Source: Xenorhabdus poinarii G6 (GTDB lineage: Bacteria > Pseudomonadota > Gammaproteobacteria > Enterobacterales > Enterobacteriaceae). From it: a DNA stretch of 64,000 bases. Under the pieces are notes generated by a model that was not told the origin of the DNA, ran no database searches, and worked only from the letters and a program-made list of their open reading frames with translations. Location of the stretch: contig NZ_FO704551.1 of the NCBI RefSeq assembly GCF_000968175.1, forward strand, positions 682,001 to 746,000. Reading direction: 5' to 3'. Positions 9,487 to 62,841 of the stretch are shown piece by piece. Made by a program: the position numbers and the translations under genes. How positions within the stretch are numbered: the first letter of the stretch is position 1; the number at the start of each line of letters is the position of its first letter.

Positions 9487-9512
9487 GTGGTGATTTGTGG
9501 GATAATGTGGAG
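9487..9512 (+). promoter_or_regulatory. MraZ operator: three TGG boxes at 10-base spacing
   Basis: GTGGT, GTGGG and GTGGA occur with TGG at 9488, 9498 and 9508, exactly 10 bases apart, between the promoter and mraZ. MraZ proteins bind direct TGGGN-type repeats with this spacing, so this is the expected autoregulatory site of the cluster. Confidence 0.72.
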
Positions 9513-9540
9513 ATTTGAGCCATCAAGGGGTAACCTGAGT

Positions 9541-9999: not shown

Positions 10000-10001
10000 A
10001 C

Positions 10002-10946
10002 ATGGCAAATAGTCATTTTAAGCATACCAGTGTACTACTGGATGAAGCGGTCAATGGACTGAATATCCAAGAAGATGGAATTTATATCGATGGCACATTT
10101 GGACGCGGGGGACACTCTCGCCTGATTTTGTCGAAACTCGGGGTCAATGGGCGTTTAATGGCAATCGATCGTGACCCACACGCGATTGAAGCGTCAAAGG
10201 CGATTGCTGACAAACGTTTTTCTATCACACATGGGCCATTTTCTGAATTGGCAACTTATGTCGAGCGTGCGGGACTGGTTGGCAAAATTAATGGGGTATT
10301 GCTGGATTTAGGGGTTTCGTCACCACAGTTGGATGATCCTGAACGGGGTTTTTCATTTATGCGTGATGGGCCGTTGGATATGCGTATGGACCCCACTCGC
10401 GGGCAATCTGCCGCCGCGTGGTTGATGAAGGCTGAAGCCGATGATATTGCGTGGGTGTTGAAAACATTTGGTGAAGAACGTTTCGCCAAGCGCATTGCGA
10501 GAGCCATCGTGACGCGTAATCAGGAACAGCCGATGACGCGAACCAGGGAGCTGGCAGAGTTAATTGCTCAGGCAAGCCCGATTAAGGAAAAACATAAGCA
10601 TCCGGCAACCCGCAGTTTTCAGGCTATCAGAATTTACATTAATAGTGAACTGGAAGAGATCGAACGTGCATTGGATGGCATCTTGCGTGTTCTGGCACCG
10701 CAGGGGCGATTATCGGTCATCAGTTTCCATTCATTGGAAGATCGCATCGTGAAACGCTTTATCCGGCAACATAGCCAGGGGCCACAGGTTCCGGCCGGTT
10801 TACCGCTCACCGAAACGCAGTTAAAAACGTTGGGAGGTCGAAGTCTGAAATCCGTTGGCAAAATGAAGCCAGCAGAGGATGAAATCGCGATTAACCCAAG
10901 AGCACGAAGCTCGGTTTTACGTTTTGCGGAAAAGGTGAGTGAATAA
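10002..10946 (+). CDS. rsmH: 16S rRNA (cytosine-1402 N4)-methyltransferase
   Basis: RsmH (MraW) methylates C1402 of 16S rRNA, tuning the ribosomal P site, with S-adenosylmethionine as donor. The 314-residue product opens [20 protein letters not shown], then has the SAM-binding [10 protein letters not shown] motif near residue 33 and the [17 protein letters not shown] signature. Length and order match E. coli. Its TAA overlaps the ftsL ATG by one base. Confidence 0.97.
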
Positions 10947-48681: not shown

Positions 48682-49287
48682 TTTCTAAACGTTGGGTGAA
48701 TGTCCTCTCAGTCAGGTGTTCGCTGCTACAAATTCTCCAACAAGTTTTCGGGAGATACATTCGATTAATTCGTTACCGTTAATTGTCATTACTAACAGTG
48801 GTGAGGATTTATCAATAGGTTTAGTCAAACTGGCAGGATTCCCAATAATGCATGAATAAAACAAGATGCAATAGTATTGTTTATCTATTTTAAAGTGAAA
48901 AAATATACCAATGAAATTTTGATTAGCCTCTATTATTAAACAAAATCAGATAAATATCTCATTGATATTTCAGCTAATATAAAAGCTCCTCAAATTATTT
49001 TTCTCGTGGCTACAGTTCTTAGTCGCATCCATTTACACGGAATGATGGGATAAATATTATCTTTAACTTATATTTCATGATGTTAATTTATCCCACTTAT
49101 CCCACTTATCCCACTTATCCCGAAATGCAGTTATAATATGTCTAACCACACTTTCTCTTTACGGTTCATGGTGTCTATTGGCCACATCAAAGCGTTATAA
49201 CGAGAGACTTGCAGTACTACAAAAATAGCTTATGGTTAAATGCAATAATGGCATGGATATATTTTAATAACATAAAAGGTATTTAAA
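48682..49287. other. intergenic region with inverted and tandem repeats
   Basis: About 600 AT-rich bases with no supported gene. Two features stand out: an inverted repeat GGGATAAAT (49047) with ATTTATCCC (49086), and the tandem TTATCCCAC repeat that begins within its right arm. Conserved E. coli genes downstream of lpd (yacH, acnB) are missing, so this is the left boundary of the accessory region. Confidence 0.55.
49088..49121. repeat. 9-base tandem repeat TTATCCCAC, 3.8 copies
   Basis: TTATCCCAC is repeated three times exactly and then partially (TTATCCC). It lies about 165 bases before the lipoprotein gene. Such short arrays can vary in copy number by slipped-strand mispairing. Confidence 0.85.
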
Positions 49288-49971
49288 ATGAAAAAATGGT
49301 TAGTAGTTGCGGCTTCAGTGCTTGCTCTTTCGGGTTGTAAGGTGGATGTTGAAACAAAAGTAAATACGGATGATTTGACTTCAGTTGATCATAAAGTTGT
49401 TAAAGGAGATATTAATGTTGAAGTGTCATCCTGTACCCACTATGAAGACTCACGTCAGGACTCAAAAGATTTAATCAAGTTAAAACAGAAAATACCCACC
49501 ATTTTTACCAATGCTGAGTATGTCGAATGTTATAGAAAAAATTTTGATTCATATGCTCATTTCACTATTCCTGTCGCGGTGGGTGTGTTACCGGACGATG
49601 GTCAATTAGGTGATAAAGCGGATATTTTCATCCTTTCCCATCAAAAAACCTATGCGGGGGCAGTGATCCCAAAAGATGTGCTGGATAAAATCAAAAAGGC
49701 ACAAAAAGATATGATGGGAAAACTGAATATCAGGATGAGTATTATTCTTGAGAGGGGAAATAAACCTGTACCAACGCTGATTAGCCTTGGGACTTATATG
49801 ACAAGTGCAAAAAATAAAGATTACCCGCTTGTGGCTGATGGGATCAATCTGGCTAAGGAAATGAAATTCAGACTTTCGGATGTCTCTAACTCAGCCTTGT
49901 CTAATGGTGAATTTGTTCCTTTCCTTGTTACATCTGATTATTTCGATTTCCTCCGGAAAGATAAAAAATAG
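49288..49971 (+). CDS. putative lipoprotein of unknown function
   Basis: A 227-residue product with a lipoprotein signal: basic start MKKWLVV, hydrophobic core and lipobox LSGC, giving a mature N-terminal Cys at residue 17 followed by KVDVETKV. The mature protein is hydrophilic with two further cysteines in the N-terminal half (CTHYEDSRQD and VECYRKN, possibly a disulfide). I do not recognise a family. AAAGG is suitably spaced before the ATG. It stands alone between the lpd terminator and an insertion sequence. Lys at +2 after the Cys would predict outer-membrane sorting. Confidence 0.8.
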   Translation: MKKWLVVAASVLALSGCKVDVETKVNTDDLTSVDHKVVKGDINVEVSSCTHYEDSRQDSKDLIKLKQKIPTIFTNAEYVECYRKNFDSYAHFTIPVAVGVLPDDGQLGDKADIFILSHQKTYAGAVIPKDVLDKIKKAQKDMMGKLNIRMSIILERGNKPVPTLISLGTYMTSAKNKDYPLVADGINLAKEMKFRLSDVSNSALSNGEFVPFLVTSDYFDFLRKDKK

Positions 49972-50025
49972 CCTGTTCTTGCCTTGATCCAAAACGACAA
50001 TGATCTCCATACTTAGGCCGCAAAA

Positions 50026-50050
50026 TGAACTGACCCCAGAAAGTTGGACA
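50026..50050 (+). repeat. left terminal inverted repeat of IS
   Basis: Matches the reverse complement of 51428-51452 at about 21 of 25 positions. Confidence 0.88.
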
Positions 50051-50056
50051 TTTTAG

Positions 50057-50830
50057 TTAAACGGCGTGTAAGGCCTGGTTTCGATATGCTATCGGAGTTA
50101 GGCCTTTTAATTTCACCTTGATCCGTTTTGTATTGTAATATTCAATGTATTCTTCTATTTTTTCAATCAGTTCATCCGCACTTTTAAAGTGCTGCTGGTG
50201 ATACATTTCTGTTTTGAGTAAGGCAAAAAAGTTTTCTGCCATCGCATTATCCAAACAGTTCCCTTTCCTCGACATACTTTGTTTAATATCTTTATCAGCA
50301 AGTTGCTTTTGATAAGCCTTATGCCGATATTGCCAACCTTGATCACTGTGAATGAGTGGCTTAGCGTGAGCATCTAGCCCATCTAATGCCTCTTTTAGCA
50401 TCTCTGTCACTAAAGGCAGACTCGCCTTTTTCGCCACGTTGTAAGCGATAACCTCTTGATTAAATAAGTCAATAATAGGTGATAGATAGACTTTTTGTTC
50501 ATTCACTTTAAATTCTGTCACATCCGTTACCCATTTCTCATTAGGTTTTGTCGCGCGAAAATCTCTTGCCAACCAATTCGGTGCTGTTTTTCCAACTTCC
50601 CCACGATAAGAACGATATTTCTTCGGCCTTACCGTGGATTTTAGGTTTAATTGCCTCATTAATCGTTGTACTGTTTTATGATTGATTTTAAAGCCATTTT
50701 TTCTCAATGCTAAATGAATGCGGCGATAACCATAACGACCTTTATGCTCATGATAGATAGTTTTAATCATCTCTATTTCTTGTTCATAAGCACGCGTTTT
50801 TTTAAGCGCCTGGCATTGATAGTAAAACAC
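50057..50830 (-). CDS. IS3-family transposase OrfB (catalytic domain)
   Basis: The 257 residues from the first ATG include the HTH_21 region GRYGYRRIHLALRKNGFKIN and an rve-type DDE integrase core: WVTDVTEF (first Asp), HSDQGWQY (second Asp) and NAMAENFFALLKTE (Glu). The reading frame remains open upstream to about 50905 and overlaps the end of orfA, with extra residues such as LARSVFYYQCQ, so the functional product is probably the OrfAB fusion made by -1 frameshifting. No stop or gap is seen in the catalytic domain. Confidence 0.93.
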   Translation of the reverse strand: MFYYQCQALKKTRAYEQEIEMIKTIYHEHKGRYGYRRIHLALRKNGFKINHKTVQRLMRQLNLKSTVRPKKYRSYRGEVGKTAPNWLARDFRATKPNEKWVTDVTEFKVNEQKVYLSPIIDLFNQEVIAYNVAKKASLPLVTEMLKEALDGLDAHAKPLIHSDQGWQYRHKAYQKQLADKDIKQSMSRKGNCLDNAMAENFFALLKTEMYHQQHFKSADELIEKIEEYIEYYNTKRIKVKLKGLTPIAYRNQALHAV

Positions 50831-50898
50831 GCTTCTTGCAAGATTAATGGCACAAAGTAAGTGCTTTAATGGATATTTCTTTTTAAGAGCTAAAACAA

Positions 50899-51405
50899 TT
50901 AACGCTTTTTCTTTGCTCGTGGGCGTTTCTTCTGTTCCAGCTCTGCTAACTTTTTTAGGACCGCATTTTCTGCACGCAAATAAGCTAATTCTTCTTTAAG
51001 TTCCTTAACTGTCATTTCGTCATCAGATTTCGGCGGGGTTTTAGATCGGGATTTCATTGGGGGTCTTCCTCGCTGAGGACTTTCGAGTCCTTTGATACCG
51101 GTTTCATTATACTTATCAAGCCAGACTGATAAGGTACCTGGAGTCGTTAAATTGAGAACTGCACTAGTGTGAGTGAGGGACCAATCATGTGTCCACATTA
51201 ATTTTAAAGCCTGGAGTTTTGTGACAGCACAAAGAGAGTGAGACGTTGGCAAAAAGGCGTTATCGCCATGAATGGCAACAACTTGAGCCCAGTATCGAAT
51301 TTGTCGAGAAGAGATTGAATATTCCGCTGATAGCTTATCCGATGTGTTACCTGCCAGACATCGTTTAGCAATAATGATTTTTAGCTCACGACTATATTTA
51401 GACAT
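50899..51405 (-). CDS. IS3-family transposase OrfA (DNA-binding)
   Basis: The 168-residue product has two helix-turn-helix segments (LAGNTSDKLSAEYSISSRQI and WSLTHTSAVLNLTTPGTLSV) and a C-terminal leucine-zipper-like coiled coil (ELKEELAYLRAENAVLKKL). It ends in the lysine-rich AKKKR. The A-rich AAAGAAAAAGC stretch just before its stop is the probable slippery site for the -1 shift into orfB. Confidence 0.92.
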   Translation of the reverse strand: MSKYSRELKIIIAKRCLAGNTSDKLSAEYSISSRQIRYWAQVVAIHGDNAFLPTSHSLCAVTKLQALKLMWTHDWSLTHTSAVLNLTTPGTLSVWLDKYNETGIKGLESPQRGRPPMKSRSKTPPKSDDEMTVKELKEELAYLRAENAVLKKLAELEQKKRPRAKKKR

Positions 51406-51427
51406 AAAAAACCCCCCAGTAATTAGT

Positions 51428-51452
51428 TGTCCAACTATTGGGGGTCACTTCA
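51428..51452 (-). repeat. right terminal inverted repeat of IS
   Basis: Pairs with 50026-50050; lies just upstream of orfA on the minus strand. The flanking AAA matches the left flank. Confidence 0.88.
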
Positions 51453-51504
51453 AAACGCGGCTTTTTCATGTCTTCAGTATGAAGGATAAATCATGCCTCT
51501 GTGA

Positions 51505-51770
51505 GAAACCTTCGCGCAGTTATTTGAATTTGATACCCATCAAGCCGACAACACCTTTGATCATTTCCTCTGTCCAATTGTCGAACAAAGTCATCAAAAA
51601 GTGGAGGGGCTGAATCGACACTGGCAGGTGTTGAACTTTGCTCCATGATTAAGCCGGGGCAAAGGCCACTACTGAAATCTTTACTCCATGGGAACAATTT
51701 TATTCTTTAGCCGCATTGTCTGAGGAAGTCCGTTTCCTCCATTTTTTGCGGTTCGCTCTCAGTTTGTGAC
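51505..51770 (+). pseudogene. decayed coding remnant of unknown family
   Basis: Directly after the IS a stop-free stretch reads TFAQLFEFDTHQADNTFDHF and on to HWQVLNFAP. After a frame change GAKATTEIFTPWEQFYSLAA and VRFLHFLRFALSL follow to a stop. The composition looks like real protein and the break suggests a frameshifted gene fragment. I do not recognise the family. Together with the IS it fills the gap between the lipoprotein and the BKACE operon. Confidence 0.4.
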
Positions 51771-51965
51771 AGAACCTGATGAAAGTGCTAACAGTTGGTA
51801 TTCTAACTGGTTAATTTAGATCCGTTTGCCCAAGGCATACACATAATCTTGCACCTTAACCCCGCTTTTGCAACAACCCCATTCAGTCCCCCTTTTTTAG
51901 GGACCGTAATTTCTCTTAATATCTATATTATCAATCAAAATGCATAATATAGGAGCTCGAAAATT
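51771..51965 (+). promoter_or_regulatory. upstream region of the BKACE-HemB operon
   Basis: About 195 bases before the first operon gene. A small inverted repeat GTCCC / GGGAC (51887-51904) and an AT-rich segment TAATATCTATATTATC that could supply a -10 are visible; no clear -35 was found. GGAGC serves as ribosome site for the BKACE gene. Confidence 0.4.
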
Positions 51966-52826
51966 ATGGAAAATTTAATCATCACTGCTGCTGTAAATGG
52001 CGGAATAACTCCCAGAAGTAAGAATCCCGCAGTCCCACATACCCCAAAAGAAATTGCTGATGATGTCGTGCAATGTAGTTTGGCTGGTGCCAGTGTCGCC
52101 CATATCCACGCTCGTGATGAAGCTGGTAAGCCAAGCTATGATAGTAAAGTTTGGCGGGAAATTATTGAGCGTGTTCGCGAGCGTTCCAATATTATTCTCA
52201 ACCTGAGCACGTCCGGTCTAAACCTTCCGCAAGGTTTTCCAGAAGAAGAAGCATGGAATCACCTTCAGTACGGCCCAGAAATAGCCTCATTTAATTGCGG
52301 TTCTGTTAACCATGGCGATAAACCATTTATCAATAGCCCCGCACTTGCCAGAAAACTGGCGCTTGCCATCAAACAACACAATGTTACACCAGAGATCGAA
52401 GTTTATCATTCAGGTGTGATCAACGAAGCAATTACCCTTCAAAAACAAGGCTACCTTGGCTCCAAACTGATGTTTGCATTTGCTATGGGGATTCATGGTG
52501 GGGTTAGCCCGACCTGCAAAGATCTACTACATTTAGTCGATTGTCTCCCAGAAAACAGTATTTGGTCTGCTATTGGCATCGGTCAGGCACAGCTCCCACT
52601 AAATACCTATTCAATTTTGCTTGGTGGTCACGTCCGCACTGGACTTGAAGACAATATTTATTACCGCAAGGGTGAGCTTGCATCCAGCAATGCCCAGCTT
52701 GTTGATCGTATCGTCAGGCTATCTCACGAATTAGGCCGGGAAGTGGCCACTGCCGATGAGGCGAGAAAAATTTTAGGGTTAAGCCAAACTTCCAAGCCAG
52801 AAACAACCGCCGCCACGGTCATGTAA
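51966..52826 (+). CDS. beta-keto acid cleavage enzyme (BKACE, DUF849)
   Basis: BKACE enzymes convert a beta-keto acid plus acetyl-CoA into acetoacetate plus a new acyl-CoA, using zinc. The 286-residue TIM-barrel product has the zinc ligands His46 and His48 in AHIHARD and Glu228 in GGHVRTGLEDN, plus NLSTSG and the family C-terminal YYRKGELASSNAQLV, so it looks catalytically complete. The N-terminal loop is NGGI type. First gene of a six-gene plus-strand operon; 28 bases to the next gene. Substrate unknown. Confidence 0.88.
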   Translation: MENLIITAAVNGGITPRSKNPAVPHTPKEIADDVVQCSLAGASVAHIHARDEAGKPSYDSKVWREIIERVRERSNIILNLSTSGLNLPQGFPEEEAWNHLQYGPEIASFNCGSVNHGDKPFINSPALARKLALAIKQHNVTPEIEVYHSGVINEAITLQKQGYLGSKLMFAFAMGIHGGVSPTCKDLLHLVDCLPENSIWSAIGIGQAQLPLNTYSILLGGHVRTGLEDNIYYRKGELASSNAQLVDRIVRLSHELGREVATADEARKILGLSQTSKPETTAATVM

Positions 52827-52854
52827 TTTCAGTCAGTAAAAGGAATTAAATAAC

Positions 52855-53538
52855 GTGTTAAAAATCAAAGCTATTTCAGACACTAGCATGTATTCAGTCG
52901 TGAAGAAAGGTGCTGAACTTAGCACAGAAAACCCCGTGGTTATTTTGTTACATGGACGCCGCCAAACTGTAGATGATATGTCTAATCTTATCCAAAAACT
53001 GAATCTGGATGATGTGACCTATTTACTACCTTGTGCACCGGACACAACATGGTATCCACATGGGTTCACCCGTGACATTGAAGAGAATCAACCCTTTCTG
53101 AACAATGGCCTCGATTATATCAACGATGTACTTCAGGACTTGCTTTCACAAGGAGTGAGCAGTCAAAACATCTGGCTAATTGGCTTTTCGCAGGGCGCTT
53201 GTATGGCCGCCGAATTTTTGAGGCAATCGTTATATCAGGTTGGTGGTGCAATCATGTTCACCGGAGGTCTATTCGGGCCGAATTGCCCAAAAGCAGCATC
53301 TCAAAAAAATGTATTTAATGAAATGAAAGTGTTTCTAACGGGTAGTAACAACGATACTTGGGTCTCTGCTGAACGTGTGACACAAACGGCCGAATATTTT
53401 GATCAGTTGGGTGCGAAAGTGCATCTACAGATTTTTACCGAACGAGACCACTACATTTCTAAGTCTGAAATTGAGACAGCCAGAGAGTTAATCTCATCCA
53501 GCTTTGCTATGAATCATGGGGAGGTCGCATATGCATAA
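52855..53538 (+). CDS. alpha/beta-hydrolase, phospholipase/carboxylesterase family
   Basis: The 227-residue serine hydrolase has the oxyanion region VILLHGRRQ, nucleophile motif GFSQG near residue 105, an acidic residue in GSNNDTWVS and His in ERDHYIS, the usual triad. The family includes small carboxylesterases and acyl-protein thioesterases. The start is GTG with AGGA upstream. It overlaps the thiolase start by eight bases, so the two are translationally coupled. In this operon it may release a free acid from a thioester or ester; that is inference. Confidence 0.85.
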   Translation: MLKIKAISDTSMYSVVKKGAELSTENPVVILLHGRRQTVDDMSNLIQKLNLDDVTYLLPCAPDTTWYPHGFTRDIEENQPFLNNGLDYINDVLQDLLSQGVSSQNIWLIGFSQGACMAAEFLRQSLYQVGGAIMFTGGLFGPNCPKAASQKNVFNEMKVFLTGSNNDTWVSAERVTQTAEYFDQLGAKVHLQIFTERDHYISKSEIETARELISSSFAMNHGEVAYA

Positions 53539-54733
53539 CGCATATATTTGTGATTTCGTAAGAACTCCCATTGGTCGCTATGGAGGCTCACTTGCTTCGA
53601 TTCGCGCTGACGACCTGGCCGCAGTCCCACTGAAGGCTCTTAAAGAGCGTCACCCAAATGTGGATTGGCGTAAGGTCGATGATGTGATTTTAGGGTGTGC
53701 TAATCAGGCTGGAGAAGATAACAGAAACATCGCCAGAATGAGTTTGCTATTAGCTGGATTTGATAAAGAGGTACCAGGTTCAACGGTAAATCGGTTATGT
53801 GCATCTGGGATGGAAGCAGTTTCTAGCGCTGCTCGCGCCATTAAAGCTGGCGAAGCCAATCTGATCATTGCCGGTGGTGTTGAGTCTATGTCACGGGCAC
53901 CATATGTACTTGGGAAAACTGATTCACCTTTTGCTCGTAATGCTGAATTCTACGATACCACGATGGGCTGGAGGTTTGTTAACGCAAAACTGAATGAAAT
54001 GTACGGCACCTGCTCTATGCCTGAAACCGCTGAAAACCTTGCGGTCAAATTCCACATTACCCGCACAGAACAGGATGCGTTTTCGCTTTTGAGCCAGCAA
54101 AAATATAGCGATGCTAAAGAGCGAGGGTTCTTCAAAAATGAAATTGTACCTGTCGAAGTCAAACGCAAACGTCAGAGTAGCTTAGTTGTTGATACAGATG
54201 AACATCCCAGAGTCTCGAGTTTAGATACCTTGGCTAATCTCAAGCCGATTGTTCATCCAAATGGTTCTGTCAGTGCTGGCAATTCATCAGGCATTAACGA
54301 CGGAGCGGCTGCATTATTGATAGCTTCAGAACAGTCACTGTCAAATTACAAACTGGTACCAAAAGCTAGGATAGTGGCAACAGCCTGTGCCGGAGTAGAG
54401 CCAAATATTATGGGCTTCGGCCCAGTGCCAGCTATTAAAAAGGTACTAGAATTAACACAACTGTCGTTAGATCAAATGGACGTGATCGAGATAAATGAGG
54501 CATTTGCATCTCAGGTACTCTCTGTCGTTAAAAGCCTTGGCATTGAGGGAAACGACCCGCGTCTGAATCAGAATGGCGGCGCAATTGCGCTTGGTCATCC
54601 ACTTGGTATGAGTGGCGCGAGAGTGGTTGGCACGGCGGTTAATCAGCTCGAACAACAACGCGGACGTTATGCGCTTTGTAGTTTGTGCATCGGTGTCGGG
54701 CAAGGAATGGCCATGATCATTGAGCGAGTTTAA
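53531..54733 (+). CDS. acetyl-CoA acyltransferase, PcaF/PaaJ-like thiolase
   Basis: Thiolases of this type make or cleave 3-oxoacyl-CoA; PcaF/PaaJ act on 3-oxoadipyl-CoA (succinyl-CoA plus acetyl-CoA). The 400-residue product has the sub-family features CANQAGEDNRNIARMSLLLA, catalytic Cys90 in NRLCASGMEA, the GHP histidine (GHPLGMSGARV) and the second Cys in CSLCIGVGQG, all intact. I chose ATG at 53531, after GGGGAGG and matching PcaF (M.DAYICDAIRTP); ATG at 53516 lies before the ribosome site. No other beta-ketoadipate genes are nearby. Confidence 0.88.
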   Translation: MHNAYICDFVRTPIGRYGGSLASIRADDLAAVPLKALKERHPNVDWRKVDDVILGCANQAGEDNRNIARMSLLLAGFDKEVPGSTVNRLCASGMEAVSSAARAIKAGEANLIIAGGVESMSRAPYVLGKTDSPFARNAEFYDTTMGWRFVNAKLNEMYGTCSMPETAENLAVKFHITRTEQDAFSLLSQQKYSDAKERGFFKNEIVPVEVKRKRQSSLVVDTDEHPRVSSLDTLANLKPIVHPNGSVSAGNSSGINDGAAALLIASEQSLSNYKLVPKARIVATACAGVEPNIMGFGPVPAIKKVLELTQLSLDQMDVIEINEAFASQVLSVVKSLGIEGNDPRLNQNGGAIALGHPLGMSGARVVGTAVNQLEQQRGRYALCSLCIGVGQGMAMIIERV

Positions 54734-54779
54734 GAAGATTAGTCGCTCTGGAGTGGCTTTGGGTTGATATCACCGGCTG

Positions 54780-55865
54780 ATGTCACTTACAAAAACTATT
54801 TTAGTAAACAAATCCTGGGGTTACATCACCGTGGTATCAATATCAAATTCAAACAATGCAGTTCAACAAGGGTTAACCAAACGCTTACGCCGTTTGCGGA
54901 CGACTTCACTGATGAGAGAATTAGTCCGGGAAAATGAGGTTCAATTAAGTGATTTAATTTACCCAATATTCATCGAAGAAAACATCTCAAGCGAGGTGCC
55001 CATTACCGCTTTACCTGGTTTAGTCAGAATACCGGAAACACAGCTTGCTTCTGAAATAAAAGAGCTTTATGCGTTAGGGATCCGATACGTGATGCCATTT
55101 GGCATTAGTCATCACAAAGACGAAATAGGTAGTGATACATGGAACAGCAACGGTTTGCTTAGTCGTATGATCTCCACTATCAAATCTACGTGTCAGCAAA
55201 TGATGGTGATACCCGATATCTGTTTTTGCGAGTATACAACGCACGGGCATTGCGGTGTATTGACCAATCACGACGTAGATAACGATCAGACTGTGACAAA
55301 CTTAGTCAAACAGTGCATCAATGCAGCACGCGCTGGGGCCGATATGCTAGCGCCCTCTGCCATGATGGACGGCCAGATCATGGCTATTCGCCAAGGGTTG
55401 GATGAAGCTGGGTTTTCTCGTGTCGCCATACTCGCCCATAGCGCGAAATTTGCCTCTTCCTTTTACGGGCCATTCAGACATGCTGTTGAGTGCGATCTTA
55501 AAGGAGATAGACGAACTTATCAGCTCGATTATGCCAATTCCAGACAAGCGCTAAGCGAAGCATTGCTCGATGAGCAAGAAGGGGCTGACATCTTAATGAT
55601 CAAACCCGGTACGCCTTACTTGGATATCTTGAGCAGTTTGCGCCGCAAAACACTGCTTCCTCTGGCGGCATATCAAGTCAGCGGAGAGTATGCTGCTATC
55701 AAGTGCGCCGCTCAAATGGGCATTTTAAACGAACAAGAAACAGTCTTAGAAACACTGACAGGTTTAAAAAGAGCGGGAGCTGATCTCATCGTAACCTATT
55801 TTGCGAAACAGTTTGCAATCTGGAATCAATGTGATTCATACACCCTAGAGCATATAAAGGCTTAA
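54780..55865 (+). CDS. porphobilinogen synthase (HemB) paralogue
   Basis: HemB condenses two 5-aminolevulinate molecules to the pyrrole porphobilinogen. In the 361 residues, the Schiff-base lysines (Lys223 in HSAKFASSFYGPF, Lys275 in LMIKPGTPYLDI) and the zinc cysteines 148, 150 and 158 (CFCEYTTHGHC) are all present. Substitutions occur at usually conserved places: DYAN for DPAN and GEYAAI for GEYAMI. No good ribosome site precedes 54780; GTG at 54831 after GGGG would give 344 residues, nearer the usual 324-340. Its place in an accessory operon with an exporter argues against it being the housekeeping hemB. Confidence 0.87.
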   Translation: MSLTKTILVNKSWGYITVVSISNSNNAVQQGLTKRLRRLRTTSLMRELVRENEVQLSDLIYPIFIEENISSEVPITALPGLVRIPETQLASEIKELYALGIRYVMPFGISHHKDEIGSDTWNSNGLLSRMISTIKSTCQQMMVIPDICFCEYTTHGHCGVLTNHDVDNDQTVTNLVKQCINAARAGADMLAPSAMMDGQIMAIRQGLDEAGFSRVAILAHSAKFASSFYGPFRHAVECDLKGDRRTYQLDYANSRQALSEALLDEQEGADILMIKPGTPYLDILSSLRRKTLLPLAAYQVSGEYAAIKCAAQMGILNEQETVLETLTGLKRAGADLIVTYFAKQFAIWNQCDSYTLEHIKA

Positions 55866-55867
55866 AA

Positions 55868-56758
55868 ATGGGATTGAAGAACTATACCCTGTGCATTCTG
55901 ATCATGGCTATATGGGGCCTTAATTTTTCCGTCGTTAAACTGGGACTAAGTACGCTTGATCCAATGTTGCTGACCGGGCTGAGATTTACATTAGCGGCTG
56001 TTCCAGCCGTTTTATTTGTGAAAAAGCCTGATGTACATTGGTTTTATCTGGCTGCCTATGGTTTAACTTTTTCGGTTGGGGTGTGGGGACTTTCAACATG
56101 GGCGATAGGTGCGGGTTTATCACCAGGCATGGCCGCTTTGTTAATTCAGACGAATGTTATTTTCGGCTTGGTGCTTGGTTGGCTCCTACTCAAAGAATCG
56201 GTGAGCACCAACCGTTTCATCGGTTCATTAATCGCTTTACTTGGATTGGCCTTGAGCCTGACAGTTTCCGATGGTTCTGTCACTATGGAAGGCGTGTTAC
56301 TTATTCTGGTTGCCGCGTTGTGTTGGTCGGTTTCCGGCGTTTTGCTTAAAAAATCAAAAACAAAACAAGTTTTTGCCTTCAGCGTGTGGTCTATGCTCTT
56401 TGCTCCCATTCCACTTTTTTTCATTTCCTACATTCAGGTTGGGACAAACGGCTTTACTGCCTTAATAGAAAATATAACCATACTCGATATATTCTCAATT
56501 TTATACCAAGCTTATTGCACAACGCTGTTCGGTTATTGGATCTGGAATAGGTTGGTTGTGTCTTACCATTTATCTCATGTGGCTCCTTTTACTTTACTTG
56601 TACCAATTTTTGCCATTTTAGGTTCAAATATTTTGTTTCACGAGGCCATATCTTCACAAAAAGTGTTAAGCTGTGCTCTGATCGCAGTTGGTTTATTAAT
56701 TGGTAGTTTTCCTGCTACTAAATTCAAAGTGTTAGCACAGTATCTTAAATTGATGTAA
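55868..56758 (+). CDS. EamA-family (DMT) transporter
   Basis: A 296-residue membrane protein with ten predicted helices in two EamA repeats (MAIWGLNFSVVKLGLSTLDP at the start, LYQAYCTTLFGYWIWNRLV in the second half). Members export amino acids and small metabolites; some import. It begins two bases after the HemB stop, so the two are likely co-translated, and it is a good candidate exporter for the operon product. Confidence 0.88.
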   Translation: MGLKNYTLCILIMAIWGLNFSVVKLGLSTLDPMLLTGLRFTLAAVPAVLFVKKPDVHWFYLAAYGLTFSVGVWGLSTWAIGAGLSPGMAALLIQTNVIFGLVLGWLLLKESVSTNRFIGSLIALLGLALSLTVSDGSVTMEGVLLILVAALCWSVSGVLLKKSKTKQVFAFSVWSMLFAPIPLFFISYIQVGTNGFTALIENITILDIFSILYQAYCTTLFGYWIWNRLVVSYHLSHVAPFTLLVPIFAILGSNILFHEAISSQKVLSCALIAVGLLIGSFPATKFKVLAQYLKLM

Positions 56759-56786
56759 TCCAACGAGTTTAAAAAGGAAGGTTAGT

Positions 56787-57509
56787 ATTTTTAATCATCG
56801 ACAAATGTGTGTTCATACCGCACATGAGCTTATGAATATAGTGTGGAATGATAAGGCACCTGAGTTCGTAAAAGATGTTATGACCTCCACAACTACGATT
56901 GAAAGCCCAATTCAACTGTCTGTAGGATCTGATTCATTTTGCAATACTTTAAAAGTGTGGCAGCGTGCATTTCCAACGTTATTGTATAAAGAAGGTAGCA
57001 TTACAACTCATGATAACGAAATTGTTGTCGAATGGACCGTAAAAGGAAAACACCTAGGTGAATTCTTGGGTATTTCTGCAACGGGTAAAGATCTGGTTTA
57101 CCAAGGGAGTTCACGGTTTACTTTTATGCATAATAAAATCAGCTATTACTCATCTGTCGTTGACATCCAGAGCATATTAGGTCAATTAATGGAGAGCTCT
57201 TTAGCTCAATGCGAAAATCTAAAGCTGCGAAGCCCTTTAGAGGATCTGTATGATGTCATTCAACAATTGCTCTCGCCCTTTTTAACAAGGCGTCAGGTAG
57301 AGTGTCTTTCGTTGTCGACATTAAGTTTGTCAGTAAAAGAAGTAGCCACCATTTTAAAAATCAAAGATAGTTCAGTTCAAACCCATCTGAAACGAGCTTT
57401 CGAATTGCTTAACATCAGCAATAAAAAAATGTTCATGACTTATATTTGTGATAATAACACAATAGAGGTATTAATTAGAATGGGGGTATATCTGAAGCAA
57501 AAAATCTAG
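56787..57509 (+). CDS. SnoaL-like domain / LuxR-type HTH regulator
   Basis: The N-terminal 130 residues resemble the SnoaL-like/ester-cyclase fold (WTVKGKHLGEFLGISATGKD, then FMHNKISYYSSVVDIQSILG), which often binds small hydrophobic or aromatic ligands. Residues 165-225 are a LuxR-type HTH (LTRRQVECLSLSTLSLSVKE, SSVQTHLKRAFELLNI). No receiver or autoinducer domain is seen. Start: the strong AAGGAAGG at 56774-56781 is 23 bases from the first ATG (56805) but five from an in-frame ATT at 56787 (IFNHRQMCVH). I give the ATT start, a rare codon, with reservation; otherwise begin at 56805. Last gene of the operon and its probable regulator. Confidence 0.75.
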   Translation: MFNHRQMCVHTAHELMNIVWNDKAPEFVKDVMTSTTTIESPIQLSVGSDSFCNTLKVWQRAFPTLLYKEGSITTHDNEIVVEWTVKGKHLGEFLGISATGKDLVYQGSSRFTFMHNKISYYSSVVDIQSILGQLMESSLAQCENLKLRSPLEDLYDVIQQLLSPFLTRRQVECLSLSTLSLSVKEVATILKIKDSSVQTHLKRAFELLNISNKKMFMTYICDNNTIEVLIRMGVYLKQKI

Positions 57510-57689
57510 GTTCAATACGTTTTTTCAGCCAAATTTTGGCTTTATTGCAGTACTACACCGGTTGTCTTTTGATAGGTCTTGTCGCGAAGTTGACGAAGAA
57601 AGCTAACATGTTGATGATGTTCACTGAGCGAAATACCATTCCTCCTGAACCGTTGGGTTATAAAATATGCGCCACAACTTCGAAGCCAT

Positions 57690-57920
57690 ATTTAGAAATA
57701 AAAGCGTCGAGTGTTTATCTTATGGCAATACATAAAAGTTAAAGGTTGGTTGACTATTCTCGAGCTGTGGACATGTACGGAGTTATTATTGATTTTTATT
57801 TAAGTGAAACCCGTGATGAGCCGGCGGCACAAACGTTTTTCAATAAAGTCATCAACCGACACGGCTTACCCGAAAGGTAAAACGCCTTATGAGACTCTTG
57901 TTGAAAAAATGAAAGCTTAA
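57690..57920 (+). pseudogene. remnants of IS6-like and another DDE transposase
   Basis: Three frame-shifted pieces are visible: QYIKVKGW near 57727-57750, then RAVDMYGVIIDFYLSETRDE followed by PAAQTFFNKVINRHGLPER up to 57879. The order matches the IS6 family catalytic domain (TYIKVKG, then the RAVD segment and the xHGLPEK segment). Immediately after, in another frame, KTPYETLVEKMKA ends at 57920, typical of the C-terminus of an IS481/IS3-like transposase. Neither is functional. Confidence 0.75.
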
Positions 57921-58090
57921 AATGATCTGTCAGTCGAAGTCAGGGATCTCACACCTAAAGGCTCTTTTTTCGCCCTGCTATATAGATTTTTTCATTTCAG
58001 ATCTGTCCAGAATAAGTTTCTTCCTGTAATCCTGTTTGTTCTATTCACATTCTCTGCCGTCCTCCTCCCTGAAAACGGCATTGATAGGCA
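57921..58090. other. convergent gap between IS remnants and indA
   Basis: No gene seen. Together with the upstream remnant it separates the plus-strand BKACE operon from the minus-strand indigoidine-type genes. Confidence 0.4.
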
Positions 58091-59014
58091 TTAGTGCTGG
58101 GAATGATATACAACGGCCAATTGGCCAGCGACCTCGGCGGTATTCACTAACACGGCTGAATTCGCCGTGGCTGATCGCCCGTAAGTGGCCTGTTCTACCG
58201 CTTTCATAATAAATTTCGTCACTAGACTACCTGTCACCCCTTCAGTGGCAGCTTTCTTGATAGCATTCTGGATCGCTGCCTGAACATCGTCGCTGTCAAT
58301 CGCATCCTCCGGCTTGGTAGGTGTAGCCACAATCATGGCAGCGCTGCCCGGCAATGCATGATTAATATCAATTGCACGGGCTACTTCCGCCAAACTATCC
58401 AGGCGCTGCGGACTACGATAGCCACTGCTGCGGCAATAGAAGGCAGGGAAATCATCAGTCTGGTACGTTACCACTGGTACGCATTGGGTTTCCAGAAACT
58501 CCAGCGTGCGCCCGATATCGAGAATATTTTTAGCGCCGGCACAAACCACAGTGACTCTGCTGCGAGTAAATTGTATTAGATCTGAAGAGATATCCATGCT
58601 GTATTCTCCGCCTCGGTGAACGCCGCCGATGCCGGCCGAGGAAAAGAAGTCAATTCCGGCCAGTTCGGCCAGCATCAAAGACGATGCCACTGTAGTGGCG
58701 CCCATGCCTTTTTGCGCAAGCACAAAAGGCAGGTTATTGCTTGAAACTTTTGTGATAGACGACGTAGTGGCAAAGCGTTCAATCTGTTCTTGGTTCATCC
58801 CAATAAAAATCTCTCCGTCACAGATACCGATGGTTGCTGGCACTGCACCGCTGCGGCGGACTGCCGCCTCTACCGCTAAAGCGGTTTCCATGTTTGCGGG
58901 ATAGTTCAGCCCGTGAGTAATCACGTTCGATTCCAACGCGACTACCGCGTGGTTGTCCGCCAGGGCGGATTTCACTTCAGGATGAATAACTAAAGGTAGT
59001 TGGTTAACTAGCAT
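58091..59014 (-). CDS. indA: IndA, pseudouridine-5'-phosphate glycosidase family
   Basis: The family cleaves the C-glycosidic bond of pseudouridine 5'-phosphate to uracil and ribose 5-phosphate. In indigoidine clusters IndA is a conserved accessory enzyme whose proposed roles include protecting the pathway from damaged side products. The 307-residue product has ALESNVITHGL with the catalytic Glu, ITKVSSNNLPFVLAQ, FFSSAGIGGVHRGGEYSMDI and VVCAGAKNILDIGRTLEFLE with the catalytic Lys, all as in PsuG. Its ATG overlaps the indC stop by one base (TAATG). Pairing with indB and indC makes the ind assignment firm; in isolation it would be called psuG. Confidence 0.88.
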   Translation of the reverse strand: MLVNQLPLVIHPEVKSALADNHAVVALESNVITHGLNYPANMETALAVEAAVRRSGAVPATIGICDGEIFIGMNQEQIERFATTSSITKVSSNNLPFVLAQKGMGATTVASSLMLAELAGIDFFSSAGIGGVHRGGEYSMDISSDLIQFTRSRVTVVCAGAKNILDIGRTLEFLETQCVPVVTYQTDDFPAFYCRSSGYRSPQRLDSLAEVARAIDINHALPGSAAMIVATPTKPEDAIDSDDVQAAIQNAIKKAATEGVTGSLVTKFIMKAVEQATYGRSATANSAVLVNTAEVAGQLAVVYHSQH

Positions 59015-62000
59015 TATGACTCACTTATCATGTCAACAGAGGGAAATAGCGCCGTTTTAAGTTGAGCGATGCTTTCAGGCTGCAGAAGCTGGTAATGACC
59101 TACTTTCAATTGGATTACGCGCGGTGGGTTAGCCCGTAGCGCTGGCGAATTTTCAAGATAGGAATAGTGGTCGCCAGCTGCTTTAATCACGGTAATCGGT
59201 GCCTGGACATGGCGCAGTTGTAATTCTTCAAAGTTGTAGCCAAAGGTGTAAGTTTGTTTGACGATTTTAACGATACGTTCAACTAACTCAGTCTGTAACT
59301 GTGGGAAACGTCGGCAAATAAAACCAATAAAATCGCTTTCACTACTACACTCATCTAGGCAGCGCTCAAGCAGAGGCCCCTCAACTTGACGGGCGAAAAC
59401 GGAAAACAAAATTGCTACAAACACTGGATTAGTGAAGCTAACTTGTTGGTCGTACTCCTGCTCGCGGTCAAACTGCGTTTTCGGTGAACCTGGAGCGATC
59501 AGATATAGAGAGGCGACTTGCTGGCCTGCTGCCTCCAACTGGTAGGCAGCTTCAAACGCTACACGCGCGCCAAAGGAGTAGCCCCACAATGTATAAGGCC
59601 CCTGCGGCTGTAACTTCCGAATCTGCGCGATATCTGCCGCCGCCATCTGCTGAATGGACGACAGTGGTACTTCCCCTTCATTGATCCCCAGCGCTTGCAC
59701 GCCATAAAACGCATGATCTTGGCTCAGGCTCTCTCCTAGCGCTTTAAGACTGAGCGGGTAACCCCCAAGACCTGGCCAGCAGAAAATTGCTGGCGCCGAT
59801 TGACGATTAAAAGGTACCAGACGCGACATCTGCTGTGTCTTAGAATTATTGCGATCTATCCATTCGGCCAACGCTATAATTCTCGGCGCCTGAAATAGAA
59901 TTTGCATTGGTAATTTGATATTGAGTGCTTTGTTTACCTGGTTGATGAACATCACCGCTGTTAGCGAATTCCCACCGCTCTCAAAGAAATCATCGTCGAC
60001 CGAGACTGTGTCCCACTTCATGACCCGGCACCAGATATCGGCCAATTTCTGTTGTAATTCGTTCTGCGCTGCAATGAAAGGTTTTTCACTATTTAACTGA
60101 CTTGCATACTGGCGATTAAGCAACTGTTGGTCAACTTTGCCATTAGCCATCAGCGGAAGATTTTCCATCACGAGTACTCGGTTCGGGATCATATAGTGCG
60201 GTAACTGGGCAGCTAAATCGGCCTTCAGCATCTCGCTTGGGCCTTGCATATGCACCCGGTCTTCATCCATACCATCATGAGTTAACTGAGAATGGCTCAG
60301 CGGGCCGCCTATGCAGAAATAGCAGCTATGCAACTGCCTGCCGTGGCGGGCTAGGAGTGCCCGCATAGCATTCGCGGCAGGCAACTCGTTTCCACTCTTT
60401 GAACTGTAACCAGCCGACATCATGCCTAATCCCAGCGGATTAGCTTGCAGACGATGCAGAGTACGTCCAAGAGTGACGTAATGCATCGGAACATTATCAT
60501 GGTTATTCACCATCATGATACCAAATCGCGCGCGCTGGTATACCTGTTGGTTAATGGCGATAACATGCTGACAGGCTAAAACCTCTTCGTCTAGAAAATG
60601 TAGCGCACCCTGACGATATTCGTACATCCCCGCAGACATGTCGGTTACCCCCCCCGCATGAACCTGCACAAAAAACTCAGGTTCATCGGTCTTCACCTCC
60701 GTATTCGCGGGCTGGATGCGGTAATCGCCAAGATAATAGTCGCTTGATGCGCCGTCGTACCACTGGGGCAAAACACCAGGCTCGGCGTTGGCGACAACCT
60801 GCAGGCCATATTCTGGCAGCAGTTCGTCAAACAATCCCAGCATATGGCCCGCTTCCATTTCCAGAACCTCTTGAATATTGTTCTGATAAATAGGCTCAAT
60901 AGCTGAGCGTTTGCCGATAAAGTGTATCGTTATGCTTGCCATCGACTTCTCCGGCAGTTCGCATACCTGATAAAGTCGATGATATACCGGATGGTAATAA
61001 TAAATTCCCGCTGGCCAACCAAACATTTTATGCAACTCAAGATACATCTGAGCTGCGTAAAGAGCCCCGGGTGACGCGTAAGCATATTTAGGCAATAGGC
61101 GGTTTGCACTTGTAAACTGGCCAAAGTTACGCAGCAACGAGCCAAAGGCTTCCGTCGACAGTGTAAGGAGCGTTCTTACCTGCTCTGTGCGTTGGTGTCG
61201 ACCCAGGATCGATAACAGTTGTGATTCGGTAACCGGCGTCGAGCCTTCAAAGAAACGATAACTTTTACGACTGAAAGCGCGATAGCGTTGAGCCGGTGTA
61301 GCTTCCTTACCTGACAGTTCAATCACAGGAAAGGGCAGGCACTGTTCCTCACTGCGACACCCCATGTTGGATAACTGAGCCTTTACCTGCTGCTTACTCG
61401 TTTTGGACTGGTGATGCTCGCTATGGATCCCTTGATCCATCAACGCTGCGTTCTGCTCATCCAACTCAATACAGGCAATCAGGTTCTGATAGTGCGTGCG
61501 TTCATCTTCATTCACCACGATTGCCGCTCTTTTCACCCAGCGATGACGTTCTATTGCCAGACGAATTTCATCCAGTTCAATACGATAGCCACGCAGCTTA
61601 ATCTGATTATCGACGCGGCCGACAAAGTGATAACAGCCGGCATTATCGCGGTACACGACATCGCCTGTACGATATAAGCGTGAATGCTTGGGCTCGGTTG
61701 TAAAACGGTTATCTAGGAACCTTTCAGCTGTCAGGTCGGGGCGCTGTAAATAGCCATCGGCAACCTGTACGCCAGATATATACAGTTCGCCTTTTTCCCC
61801 TTCCGCGATCGGCTGCTGATATGGATCAAGTACATAAAACCGTGTGTCGTCTACTGGATAGCCTATTGGTACGGCATCCGGCAACTGTTCCAGCGTGTCC
61901 CATTTTACCTCATACACCGAAGAGTTGATGGTGCATTCTGTTGGTCCATACAGGTTGATTAGATGGGTATTCGGTAGGCATTGAAATAATTGCCGCGCAA

Positions 62001-62841
62001 GATTACGCGTTAATATTTCACCGCCGCAAAAGACATGAGTTAACGCTTGGCAGTCCTGTAATAGTGGTTGATCGACCAATGCCTGCAACAGGGTTGGTAC
62101 ACATTGAAGACAGGTGATCTGCTCATGCAGCAACGTTTCCGCCATCAGGTCTGGATCGCTATAGCACCCTTTCGGTGCGATTACTAACGTAACGCCCATC
62201 GCCGGCGCCAGGATTTCCCACTGTGCGGCGTCAAAACTCATCGGCGTTTTCTGCAAAATACGGCTGTGTGTGCCAAAAGCAAAGCGTCTGCTGAGGTAGC
62301 ACATTTGGTAGGATATATTCTGGTAGTTGACCATCACGCCTTTGGGTTTACCCGAACTGCCGGATGTGTAAATTACATAAGCCAGCCTCTCTCTATCCTT
62401 GGCTTCCATGAAGTTAAACGACTCAGGCAAGTGGAATAGATAAGGAATATCATTTTCGGTTATAATAGTAACGTCATGTTCGACTAGCGCTTGCAGTTTT
62501 TCTTTAAGGTGATGTTGACAAAAAATAACGTCGACCCTCGAATCCGCAATCATGTAGCGCAGCCGCTCTTCCGGATATTCAGGCGCCAGCGGCAAATAGG
62601 CATAGCCGGTGGCCAAAATTCCCCAAGCGGCGGTAACTAAGCTTACGGAAGGCTCACAGAATAAACCGATGCAAACTGTGTTCTCATTAACACTCTGCTG
62701 TAAACGGGAATAAATACTGAATATATGCTGGAAAAAATCTTGATAATTTAGTTCGCTGTCAGCATCCCTCACCGCAATGGATTCAGGATGAAGGCTACGT
62801 TTTTGAGATAATTGTTCAAATAGTCCCACAAAATTATTCAT
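59014..62841 (-). CDS. indC: indigoidine synthase-type NRPS (A-Ox-T-TE)
   Basis: Single-module synthases of the IndC/BpsA type adenylate L-glutamine, cyclise and oxidise it, and two units dimerise to the blue pigment indigoidine. In 1,275 residues the order is: adenylation domain (A3 motif YTSGSSGKPKGVM at 158-170, A4 FDAAQWE at 203-209, A8 region with YRTGDV and KLRGYRIELDEIR near 405-440); a flavin oxidase inserted before the A10 motif NGKVD (about 530-850); carrier with GGNSL; and thioesterase with nucleophile GYSFG. No condensation domain, as expected. No premature stop; all core motifs look intact. The glutamine preference is inferred from family architecture. Confidence 0.93.
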   Translation of the reverse strand: MNNFVGLFEQLSQKRSLHPESIAVRDADSELNYQDFFQHIFSIYSRLQQSVNENTVCIGLFCEPSVSLVTAAWGILATGYAYLPLAPEYPEERLRYMIADSRVDVIFCQHHLKEKLQALVEHDVTIITENDIPYLFHLPESFNFMEAKDRERLAYVIYTSGSSGKPKGVMVNYQNISYQMCYLSRRFAFGTHSRILQKTPMSFDAAQWEILAPAMGVTLVIAPKGCYSDPDLMAETLLHEQITCLQCVPTLLQALVDQPLLQDCQALTHVFCGGEILTRNLARQLFQCLPNTHLINLYGPTECTINSSVYEVKWDTLEQLPDAVPIGYPVDDTRFYVLDPYQQPIAEGEKGELYISGVQVADGYLQRPDLTAERFLDNRFTTEPKHSRLYRTGDVVYRDNAGCYHFVGRVDNQIKLRGYRIELDEIRLAIERHRWVKRAAIVVNEDERTHYQNLIACIELDEQNAALMDQGIHSEHHQSKTSKQQVKAQLSNMGCRSEEQCLPFPVIELSGKEATPAQRYRAFSRKSYRFFEGSTPVTESQLLSILGRHQRTEQVRTLLTLSTEAFGSLLRNFGQFTSANRLLPKYAYASPGALYAAQMYLELHKMFGWPAGIYYYHPVYHRLYQVCELPEKSMASITIHFIGKRSAIEPIYQNNIQEVLEMEAGHMLGLFDELLPEYGLQVVANAEPGVLPQWYDGASSDYYLGDYRIQPANTEVKTDEPEFFVQVHAGGVTDMSAGMYEYRQGALHFLDEEVLACQHVIAINQQVYQRARFGIMMVNNHDNVPMHYVTLGRTLHRLQANPLGLGMMSAGYSSKSGNELPAANAMRALLARHGRQLHSCYFCIGGPLSHSQLTHDGMDEDRVHMQGPSEMLKADLAAQLPHYMIPNRVLVMENLPLMANGKVDQQLLNRQYASQLNSEKPFIAAQNELQQKLADIWCRVMKWDTVSVDDDFFESGGNSLTAVMFINQVNKALNIKLPMQILFQAPRIIALAEWIDRNNSKTQQMSRLVPFNRQSAPAIFCWPGLGGYPLSLKALGESLSQDHAFYGVQALGINEGEVPLSSIQQMAAADIAQIRKLQPQGPYTLWGYSFGARVAFEAAYQLEAAGQQVASLYLIAPGSPKTQFDREQEYDQQVSFTNPVFVAILFSVFARQVEGPLLERCLDECSSESDFIGFICRRFPQLQTELVERIVKIVKQTYTFGYNFEELQLRHVQAPITVIKAAGDHYSYLENSPALRANPPRVIQLKVGHYQLLQPESIAQLKTALFPSVDMISES

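What the first reader, a model, noticed from the sequence alone, without database searches (positions are those of the whole stretch)
51966..57509. Undescribed six-gene operon: BKACE, hydrolase, PcaF-like thiolase, HemB paralogue, EamA exporter, SnoaL-LuxR regulator
The six genes are co-directional with gaps of 28, -8, 46, 2 and about 28 bases, so they look like one transcript in an accessory island. Porphobilinogen synthase performs a Knorr-type condensation of an aminoketone. A thiolase and a BKACE make or exchange beta-keto acids, the other partner type in Knorr pyrrole chemistry, and the hydrolase could free the acid from CoA. I infer that the operon makes a pyrrole or related heterocycle from 5-aminolevulinate (or an analogue) and a beta-keto acid such as acetoacetate or 3-oxoadipate, which is then exported. 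I do not know of a described pathway with this set. All catalytic residues I could check are present. No carrier protein, NRPS or PKS domain is involved, so standard cluster finders could miss it.
Basis: partly seen in the sequence, partly recalled or inferred. Interest (0 to 1): 0.9.

Follow-up and report, generated by a model that had tools for sequence, protein, structure and literature searches.

The report
Heme-inhibitor cassette with spare HemB
Six neighbouring genes found together, behind one shared upstream DNA motif, in an enterobacterium and several Vibrio relatives would likely make and export succinylacetone, a known poison of heme synthesis, and they include a second copy of the enzyme that it poisons, HemB, which likely protects the producer.

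Summary
The operon at 51966-57509 is real. Ten Vibrio/Photobacterium loci share its DNA from at or just before the first gene to the end of the sixth, in the same order. A 19-bp dyad ends 61 bp before the first gene in 11 of 11 six-gene loci. It occurs once in each of 8 carrier genomes scanned and not at all in two relatives whose loci lack the SnoaL-LuxR gene. A rearranged four-gene version (BKACE-HemB-hydrolase-thiolase) in a Photobacterium marks the likely core.

HemB2 is not the genome's only HemB, keeps every catalytic residue checked, and its sister type is the only HemB found in 3 of 9 genomes holding it. So it looks like a working spare porphobilinogen synthase. The closest precedent is the Burkholderia flavophos cluster: a BKACE relative makes a beta-diketone, EamA is its likely exporter, and a duplicated target enzyme gives resistance (PMC12871164). 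By that logic thiolase, hydrolase and BKACE would turn succinyl-CoA and acetyl-CoA into succinylacetone, the classical HemB inhibitor (recalled). The product is inferred, and the BKACE's exact chemistry is open.

The parts
51886..51904 (+). 19-bp inverted repeat GTCCCCCTTTTTTAGGGAC, likely operator/activator site of the operon's own LuxR-type regulator
   Evidence: Only exact match to GTCNCCNTTTTTTNGGGAC in the 3.66 Mb genome; ends 61 bp before the BKACE ATG in 11 of 11 six-gene loci; once in each of 7 Vibrionaceae genomes with the regulator, 0 in G639 and G509, whose loci lack it, 0 in 5 control genomes. Binding is inferred.
51966..52826 (+). BKACE (PF05853), likely acetyl-transferring step
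   Evidence: 306.8 bits Pfam; below the cut-offs of all four NCBIfam BKACE models that it matches; Zn ligands H46, H48, E228 and Tyr147 kept; clade-specific H116 and K119
52855..53538 (+). alpha/beta hydrolase (Abhydrolase_2), likely CoA-thioester hydrolase
   Evidence: Pfam; Ser112, Asp167 and His199, the likely triad, invariant in 5 of 5 aligned orthologues
53516..54733 (+). PcaF-type thiolase (3-oxoadipyl-CoA thiolase), likely run in the condensing direction; second ATG at 53531 may be the true start
   Evidence: TIGR02430 656.7 bits vs cut-off 597; best PDB matches 8gqh and beta-ketoadipyl-CoA thiolases 6pca-6pcd
54780..55865 (+). HemB2, Zn-cysteine-type porphobilinogen synthase, likely immunity copy
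   Evidence: PF00490 436.2 bits; NF009923 599.8 vs 507; catalytic residues; tree
55868..56758 (+). EamA-family (DMT) exporter
   Evidence: PF00892; nearest NCBIfam model PRK11453, 164.6 bits, far below its cut-off of 472
56805..57509 (+). SnoaL-like domain fused to a LuxR-type HTH, likely regulator
   Evidence: PF07366 and PF00196

Best explanation
The six genes form one cassette, shared between genera and plasmids, that likely makes succinylacetone (4,6-dioxoheptanoate), a classical inhibitor of porphobilinogen synthase (HemB), would export it, and carries an extra HemB that is predicted to keep the producer's heme synthesis running. Proposed steps, all inferred from family chemistry: (1) the PcaF-type thiolase condenses succinyl-CoA with acetyl-CoA to 3-oxoadipyl-CoA; (2) the hydrolase frees 3-oxoadipate; (3) the BKACE acetylates it with acetyl-CoA and the adduct decarboxylates to succinylacetone, as BsfD does for flavophos, or, run backwards as a normal BKACE, it joins 3-oxoadipyl-CoA to the acetate unit of acetoacetate, giving 3,5-dioxosuberate, which loses CO2 to the same product; (4) EamA exports it; (5) HemB2 supplies porphobilinogen while the host's own HemB is inhibited; (6) the SnoaL-LuxR protein senses the product or an intermediate and switches the operon at the 19-bp dyad. 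Shown here: gene content, order, the shared block, conserved catalytic residues, a second host HemB and the conserved dyad.
For: Conserved block: in 49001-60000 of the window, DNA similarity to ten six-gene Vibrionaceae loci begins between 51862 and 51966 and ends between 57500 and 57515. Core of four: Photobacterium G509 keeps BKACE-HemB-hydrolase-thiolase in another order, about 61/62/47/61% identical, without adjacent exporter or SnoaL-LuxR. HemB2 is an extra copy: a 42-46% HemB is also present in 9 of 9 Vibrionaceae genomes with the BKACE and the window genome has its own canonical HemB. HemB2 looks catalytically whole: Cys120/122/130, Lys195/247, Arg205/216, Ser273 and Tyr312 (E. coli numbering, roles recalled) are kept in 12 of 12 copies of the operon clade, 9 from operon loci and 3 placed by the tree. 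The sister type is the only HemB found in 3 of 9 genomes that hold it. Chemistry fits one target: the thiolase is a succinyl-unit enzyme and succinyl-CO- is the half of 5-aminolevulinate that HemB recognises. Direct precedent: the flavophos bsf cluster has a BKACE relative making an acetyl beta-diketone, an EamA gene that may be the transporter, and a duplicated target enzyme that confers resistance (PMC12871164). BKACE15 accepts 3,5-dioxohexanoate and its reverse reaction is used in an assay (PMC11961710, passages).
Against: No product or activity was measured. The BKACE keeps the catalytic Tyr (Tyr147; Tyr145 in CcaKce) that is Phe in BsfD, which favours ordinary exchange: 3-oxoadipate + acetyl-CoA to succinyl-CoA + acetoacetate, with no diketone. 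This mark is weak: Phe also stands there in L228, which passes the ordinary 3-oxoadipate BKACE model, and in five other BKACE relatives aligned. The BKACE scores below the 3-oxoadipate and 3,5-dioxohexanoate models. Nine HemB2 positions are unique to the operon clade and none is a checked catalytic residue, so no resistance substitution is evident. HemB2 is the zinc type, by recall the type most sensitive to succinylacetone; protection would then rest on extra enzyme or on the metal-type difference. Even for flavophos the authors call the way the duplicate protects inconclusive. The G509 variant has no adjacent EamA or SnoaL-LuxR, and its HemB is more diverged from the window's (62%) than the canonical HemBs are (73%). 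Relatives of the BKACE (54-75%) occur in Zobellella, Halomonas, Hahella, Chromobacterium, Methylobacterium and others whose neighbourhoods I could not read. HemB in the minimal core is also what a biosynthetic HemB would show.
Confidence: 0.45

Rival explanations
1. One reading: HemB2 is the last biosynthetic enzyme and condenses 5-aminolevulinate (or an analogue) with a beta-keto compound made by the thiolase and BKACE, giving an exported pyrrole.
For: HemB2 is in the four-gene core even where exporter and SnoaL-LuxR are absent from the locus. Both ketone-binding lysines are present. 3-Oxoadipate and succinylacetone carry the same succinyl half as 5-aminolevulinate, so they could enter the A site (inference).
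Against: None of the nine active-site residues checked has changed in HemB2 relative to zinc-type HemB, whereas a new substrate would be expected to leave a mark. The sister type is the only HemB found in 3 of 9 genomes. A duplicated target plus EamA plus BKACE is a known immunity arrangement.
Confidence: 0.2
2. Levulinate rather than succinylacetone: thiolase and hydrolase make 3-oxoadipate, which loses CO2 to levulinate, the other textbook HemB inhibitor; BKACE recycles carbon or has a side role. HemB2 is still the immunity copy.
For: Needs only the thiolase and hydrolase, both in the four-gene core; the BKACE keeps the Tyr of CcaKce.
Against: Leaves the BKACE without a part although it is in every operon locus seen; levulinate is a weak inhibitor (recalled).
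Confidence: 0.1
3. The operon is catabolic: BKACE and thiolase break a foreign beta,delta-diketo acid (such as succinylacetoacetate) down to succinyl-CoA and acetyl-CoA, and HemB2 and EamA protect against its toxicity.
For: Run in their textbook directions the two enzymes could do exactly this (for the BKACE direction; PcaF direction recalled).
Against: No importer or CoA ligase among the six genes; an exporter-type gene is present; rare, patchy, partly plasmid-borne distribution suits a weapon more than a nutrient.
Confidence: 0.13
4. HemB2 is a metal-dependent isozyme that raises porphobilinogen supply, and the other genes are unrelated passengers.
For: Host HemB is the Asp-rich type and HemB2 the zinc-cysteine type.
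Against: The gene set stays together across genera and on plasmids, including a rearranged version, which passengers would not be expected to do.
Confidence: 0.05

Closest known systems
Flavophos (bsf) cluster of Burkholderia (preprint PMC12871164: abstract, Results parts 1 and 2 of 3, Discussion and term-search passages, including part of the Conclusion, seen)
   Same: BKACE-family enzyme, EamA-family gene that may be the transporter, duplicated essential enzyme inside the cluster with its catalytic residues kept; the proposed product is again an acetyl beta-diketone mimicking a substrate of that enzyme
   Different: No PepM or other phosphonate gene among the six; succinyl unit from a PcaF-type thiolase; target would be HemB, not lumazine synthase; BKACE keeps the Tyr that is Phe in BsfD; a SnoaL-LuxR gene and conserved dyad are added
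Alaremycin (Streptomyces), a natural HemB inhibitor (seen only as passages in the reviews PMC12670364 and PMC13402209; primary paper not held)
   Same: Natural product that displaces 5-aminolevulinate in HemB
   Different: By recall made by an aminolevulinate-synthase-like enzyme; not a BKACE route; I could not check whether its cluster has a HemB copy
Beta-ketoadipate pathway thiolase PcaF
   Same: Thiolase passes the PcaF equivalog cut-off
   Different: No other protocatechuate-pathway gene among the six; likely runs in the condensing direction
Kce / BKACE enzymes of lysine fermentation and aromatic degradation
   Same: PF05853 profile and zinc ligands
   Different: Amine-binding Glu of Kce (recalled) is Ile; clade-specific His116 and Lys119; below equivalog cut-offs

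Membership tests
Porphobilinogen synthase (HemB) | ALAD profile over curated cut-off | tested here: met
   PF00490 436.2 bits (cut-off 24.6), NF009923 599.8 (cut-off 507):
Porphobilinogen synthase (HemB) | Two Schiff-base lysines, metal site, A-site arginines | tested here: met
   12 of 12 operon-clade copies and G509; residue roles recalled
Porphobilinogen synthase (HemB) | Makes porphobilinogen from 5-aminolevulinate | not testable with these tools
   needs assay; sister type is the only HemB found in G290, G337, G401
Flavophos-type BKACE beta-diketone cluster | BKACE + EamA + duplicate of an essential enzyme | tested here: met
   the G509 variant lacks an adjacent EamA
Flavophos-type BKACE beta-diketone cluster | Phosphonate genes (PepM etc.) | tested here: not met
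   none among the six genes; so it is not a phosphonate cluster
Flavophos-type BKACE beta-diketone cluster | Catalytic Tyr replaced by Phe in the BKACE | tested here: not met
   Tyr147 kept; Phe is not unique to BsfD
Flavophos-type BKACE beta-diketone cluster | Duplicate enzyme confers resistance to the product | not testable with these tools
   needs bench test
PcaF 3-oxoadipyl-CoA thiolase | TIGR02430 equivalog cut-off | tested here: met
   656.7 bits vs 597
3-oxoadipate or 3,5-dioxohexanoate BKACE | NF053568 / NF053538 equivalog cut-offs | tested here: not met
   209.2 vs 350 and 195.3 vs 430

The most novel reading that the evidence does not exclude
This is the second example, after flavophos, of a general class of small antimetabolite cassettes in which a BKACE-family enzyme makes an acetyl beta-diketone warhead against a carbonyl-condensing enzyme, and the cassette carries an EamA exporter and a spare copy of the target. 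Here the warhead would be succinylacetone, known (by recall) only as a disease metabolite and lab reagent, used by bacteria as a heme-synthesis weapon, with HemB2 as immunity and a SnoaL-LuxR protein as product sensor at a dedicated 19-bp dyad. HemB2 might also join succinylacetone to 5-aminolevulinate into a pyrrole.
Probability: 0.35. Interest if true: 0.92.

Novelty: new variant of a known kind. Interest (0 to 1): 0.82.

Why it matters
If true, a textbook heme-pathway inhibitor has a natural bacterial source, with a complete small genetic system (make, export, sense, survive) that also sits on Vibrio plasmids and that, having no PKS or NRPS domain, standard cluster finders could miss. It would turn the flavophos logic into a class, give a search rule (BKACE beside EamA beside a duplicated essential enzyme), and name HemB as a target that bacteria may already attack in one another. 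Each step can be tested with purified enzymes and standards.

Tried and rejected
Looked for adjacent HemB in the wider BKACE family: of the 80 loci kept (138 encoded a relative), only 4 carry a HemB2-like gene (tblastn E 1e-10, flanks up to 10 kb). Standalone HemB relatives: none of 9 opened loci (15-17 kb each) has a BKACE, hydrolase or thiolase match at E 1e-5. Taxonomic samples: 0 of 393 other order genomes (best 45% identity) and 0 of 368 other class genomes (best 216 bits against 519) carry a close BKACE. Looked for an active-site change in HemB2 that would explain resistance: nine operon-only positions, none among the catalytic residues checked. Sought 3-oxoadipate BKACE family members for pocket comparison: 2 of 185 genomes over cut-off, and only one sequence could be aligned (L227 dropped), not enough to infer the pocket. 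Literature, numbers of papers found: succinylacetone with biosynthetic gene cluster 1, with Vibrio 2, with bacteria/hemB/inhibitor/natural product 0, with bacterial/natural product/biosynthesis 9, with hemB 0; hemB with self-resistance and gene cluster 3; porphobilinogen synthase with Knorr 2; alaremycin 2; Xenorhabdus poinarii with hemB 0; BKACE 37, of which 20 were listed. From listings and starts of abstracts none describes this operon; absence is claimed only for these searches in the held library. No structure prediction was run.
Full report
What is there. Six co-directional ORFs occupy 51966-57509: BKACE, alpha/beta hydrolase, PcaF-type thiolase, HemB, EamA transporter and a SnoaL domain fused to a LuxR-type HTH. 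The genome (3,659,523 bases, one contig) holds a second HemB elsewhere. By size, and by the indigoidine-type genes next door, I suspect Xenorhabdus poinarii; that is recalled, not tested.

Do the genes travel together? Yes. The closest BKACE genes found in named genomes are in Vibrio sp. Isolate32, V. diabolicus, Photobacterium salinisoli and V. neptunius (84-89%; next best 49%), and 4 of 4 have all six genes in the same order. In the V. sp. Isolate32 locus EamA matches in two frames. In 329 genomes of that family, 8 have a BKACE at 83% or more, one at 61%, the rest only more distant matches or none. Of those 9, six are full six-gene loci (counting Isolate32), one (G628) has all six but with broken frames in three, one (G639) keeps only BKACE, hydrolase and part of the thiolase, and one (G509) is a four-gene variant. 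Six of 72,556 plasmid records hold an 80-90% BKACE; three were opened, and all three show the six genes. An Aeromonas HemB is 91% identical. In the window's own genus, 0 of 29 other genomes searched have the second HemB type. Within 49001-60000 of the window, shared DNA begins between 51862 and 51966 and ends between 57500 and 57515 in the ten six-gene loci, so the unit is the six genes plus at most a short upstream stretch. HemB2 is 78-81% identical between window and four Vibrionaceae, against 70-73% for their canonical HemBs, consistent with transfer; the G509 copy, at 62% against 73%, is not a recent one.

A conserved upstream element. Upstream sequence is mostly unalignable, but GTCNCCNTTTTTTNGGGAC is kept (10 loci aligned), ending 61 bases before the BKACE start in 11 of 11 six-gene loci. 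It occurs once in the window genome and once in each of 7 Vibrionaceae genomes with the regulator. It is absent from G639 and G509, whose operon loci lack the SnoaL-LuxR gene, and from 5 control genomes. Loci are related, so these are not independent counts. That the SnoaL-LuxR protein binds there is inferred.

A minimal version. Rearrangement with retention points to these four as the functional core. Beyond that, BKACE and hydrolase relatives share identical longest-contig lengths in six cases outside the known carriers (4201419 Zobellella, 4803686 Halomonas, 6960771 Hahella, 21186 Methylobacterium, and 13231 and 14337 unnamed), and HemB with hydrolase or BKACE on three unnamed contigs (12156, 7365, 5035): compared by eye in the capped listings. 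Other BKACE relatives (Chromobacterium, Janthinobacterium, Acinetobacter pittii, Methylobacterium currus, Rhodopseudomonas telluris and more) showed no such match in the 120 hydrolases listed, and for Pectobacteriaceae CE90 the lengths differ. Contig length is a fingerprint, not proof of adjacency, and it says nothing of HemB in those genera.

What HemB2 is. The nine residues checked are kept in 12 of 12 operon-clade copies (9 from operon loci, 3 placed by the tree) and in G509. The host and Vibrio canonical HemBs lack the three cysteines (Asp-rich type); HemB2 is the cysteine (zinc) type. In the tree the operon copies form one clade (100/99) that groups with standalone HemBs of Shewanella, Photobacterium, Marinomonas and others (94/89), with G509 just outside (the program flags G509 as a long branch, so its place is unsure). 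Among 394 order genomes, 9 others hold the standalone type and in 3 it is the only HemB found. So the lineage most likely makes porphobilinogen.

How it most likely works. Flavophos gives the key (preprint PMC12871164; abstract, Results parts 1 and 2 of 3, Discussion and passages seen): BsfD, a BKACE relative, acetylates a beta-keto acid with acetyl-CoA, and decarboxylation gives a beta-diketone; BsfE is an EamA protein that may export it; BsfB, a second lumazine synthase, confers resistance, as do lumazine synthases from other species, though whether by activity or by sequestration was left open. Applied here, the beta-keto acid would be 3-oxoadipate (thiolase then hydrolase) and the diketone succinylacetone, recalled as the standard HemB inhibitor. 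Every gene then has a role. The alternative of a normal BKACE running in reverse gives the same product. BKACE15 is reported to accept 3,5-dioxohexanoate, and its reverse reaction is used in an assay (PMC11961710, passages).

What speaks against it. The BKACE keeps the Tyr that is Phe in BsfD, though Phe also occurs in ordinary family members, one of them over the 3-oxoadipate BKACE cut-off, so this residue does not decide. The BKACE is below the curated 3-oxoadipate and 3,5-dioxohexanoate models. HemB2 shows no change at the catalytic residues checked, and zinc-type HemB is by recall succinylacetone-sensitive. HemB in the minimal core also fits a biosynthetic HemB. No metabolite was measured.

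Novelty. In the ten paper searches made, no paper listed appears to link succinylacetone, or a HemB copy, to a bacterial gene cluster (judged from listings, of which one search showed 20 of 37). Alaremycin is the known natural HemB inhibitor (passages in two reviews). The architecture is a variant of the flavophos kind with a new predicted target and product.

Noticed in passing
window 58091-62841 (-): Indigoidine-type genes directly beside the operon: an Indigoidine_A protein and a single-module NRPS with AMP-binding, PP-binding and thioesterase domains.
   Followed up: partly
window 50057-51405 (-): IS3-family transposase pair about 560 bases upstream of the operon start, a possible agent of its arrival.
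   Followed up: no
L224, L225, L226 (G337, G290, G401): The standalone PRK13384-type HemB has Gly where E. coli HemB has Ser273 in 9 of 9 genome loci aligned, including the three genomes in which it is the only HemB found.
   Followed up: yes
L175 (G639): Operon remnant: BKACE and hydrolase match in full, thiolase cut short, next to a secretion-type ABC transporter and a large repeat protein of RTX appearance (by reading); the genome has neither the dyad nor HemB2.
   Followed up: partly
L178 (G509) 5800-10422: The four-gene variant and its AraC-type neighbour appear to sit inside a maltose-uptake locus (porin-like gene on one side, malK/malE/malF/malG-like genes on the other, by reading), as if dropped in as a unit.
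   Followed up: no
window BKACE clade: A BKACE subfamily (54% identity and up) with His116 and Lys119 in all 18 members aligned, and in none of the 7 other BKACEs aligned, also occurs in Hahella, Halomonas, Chromobacterium, Methylobacterium and other genera of unread neighbourhood.
   Followed up: partly
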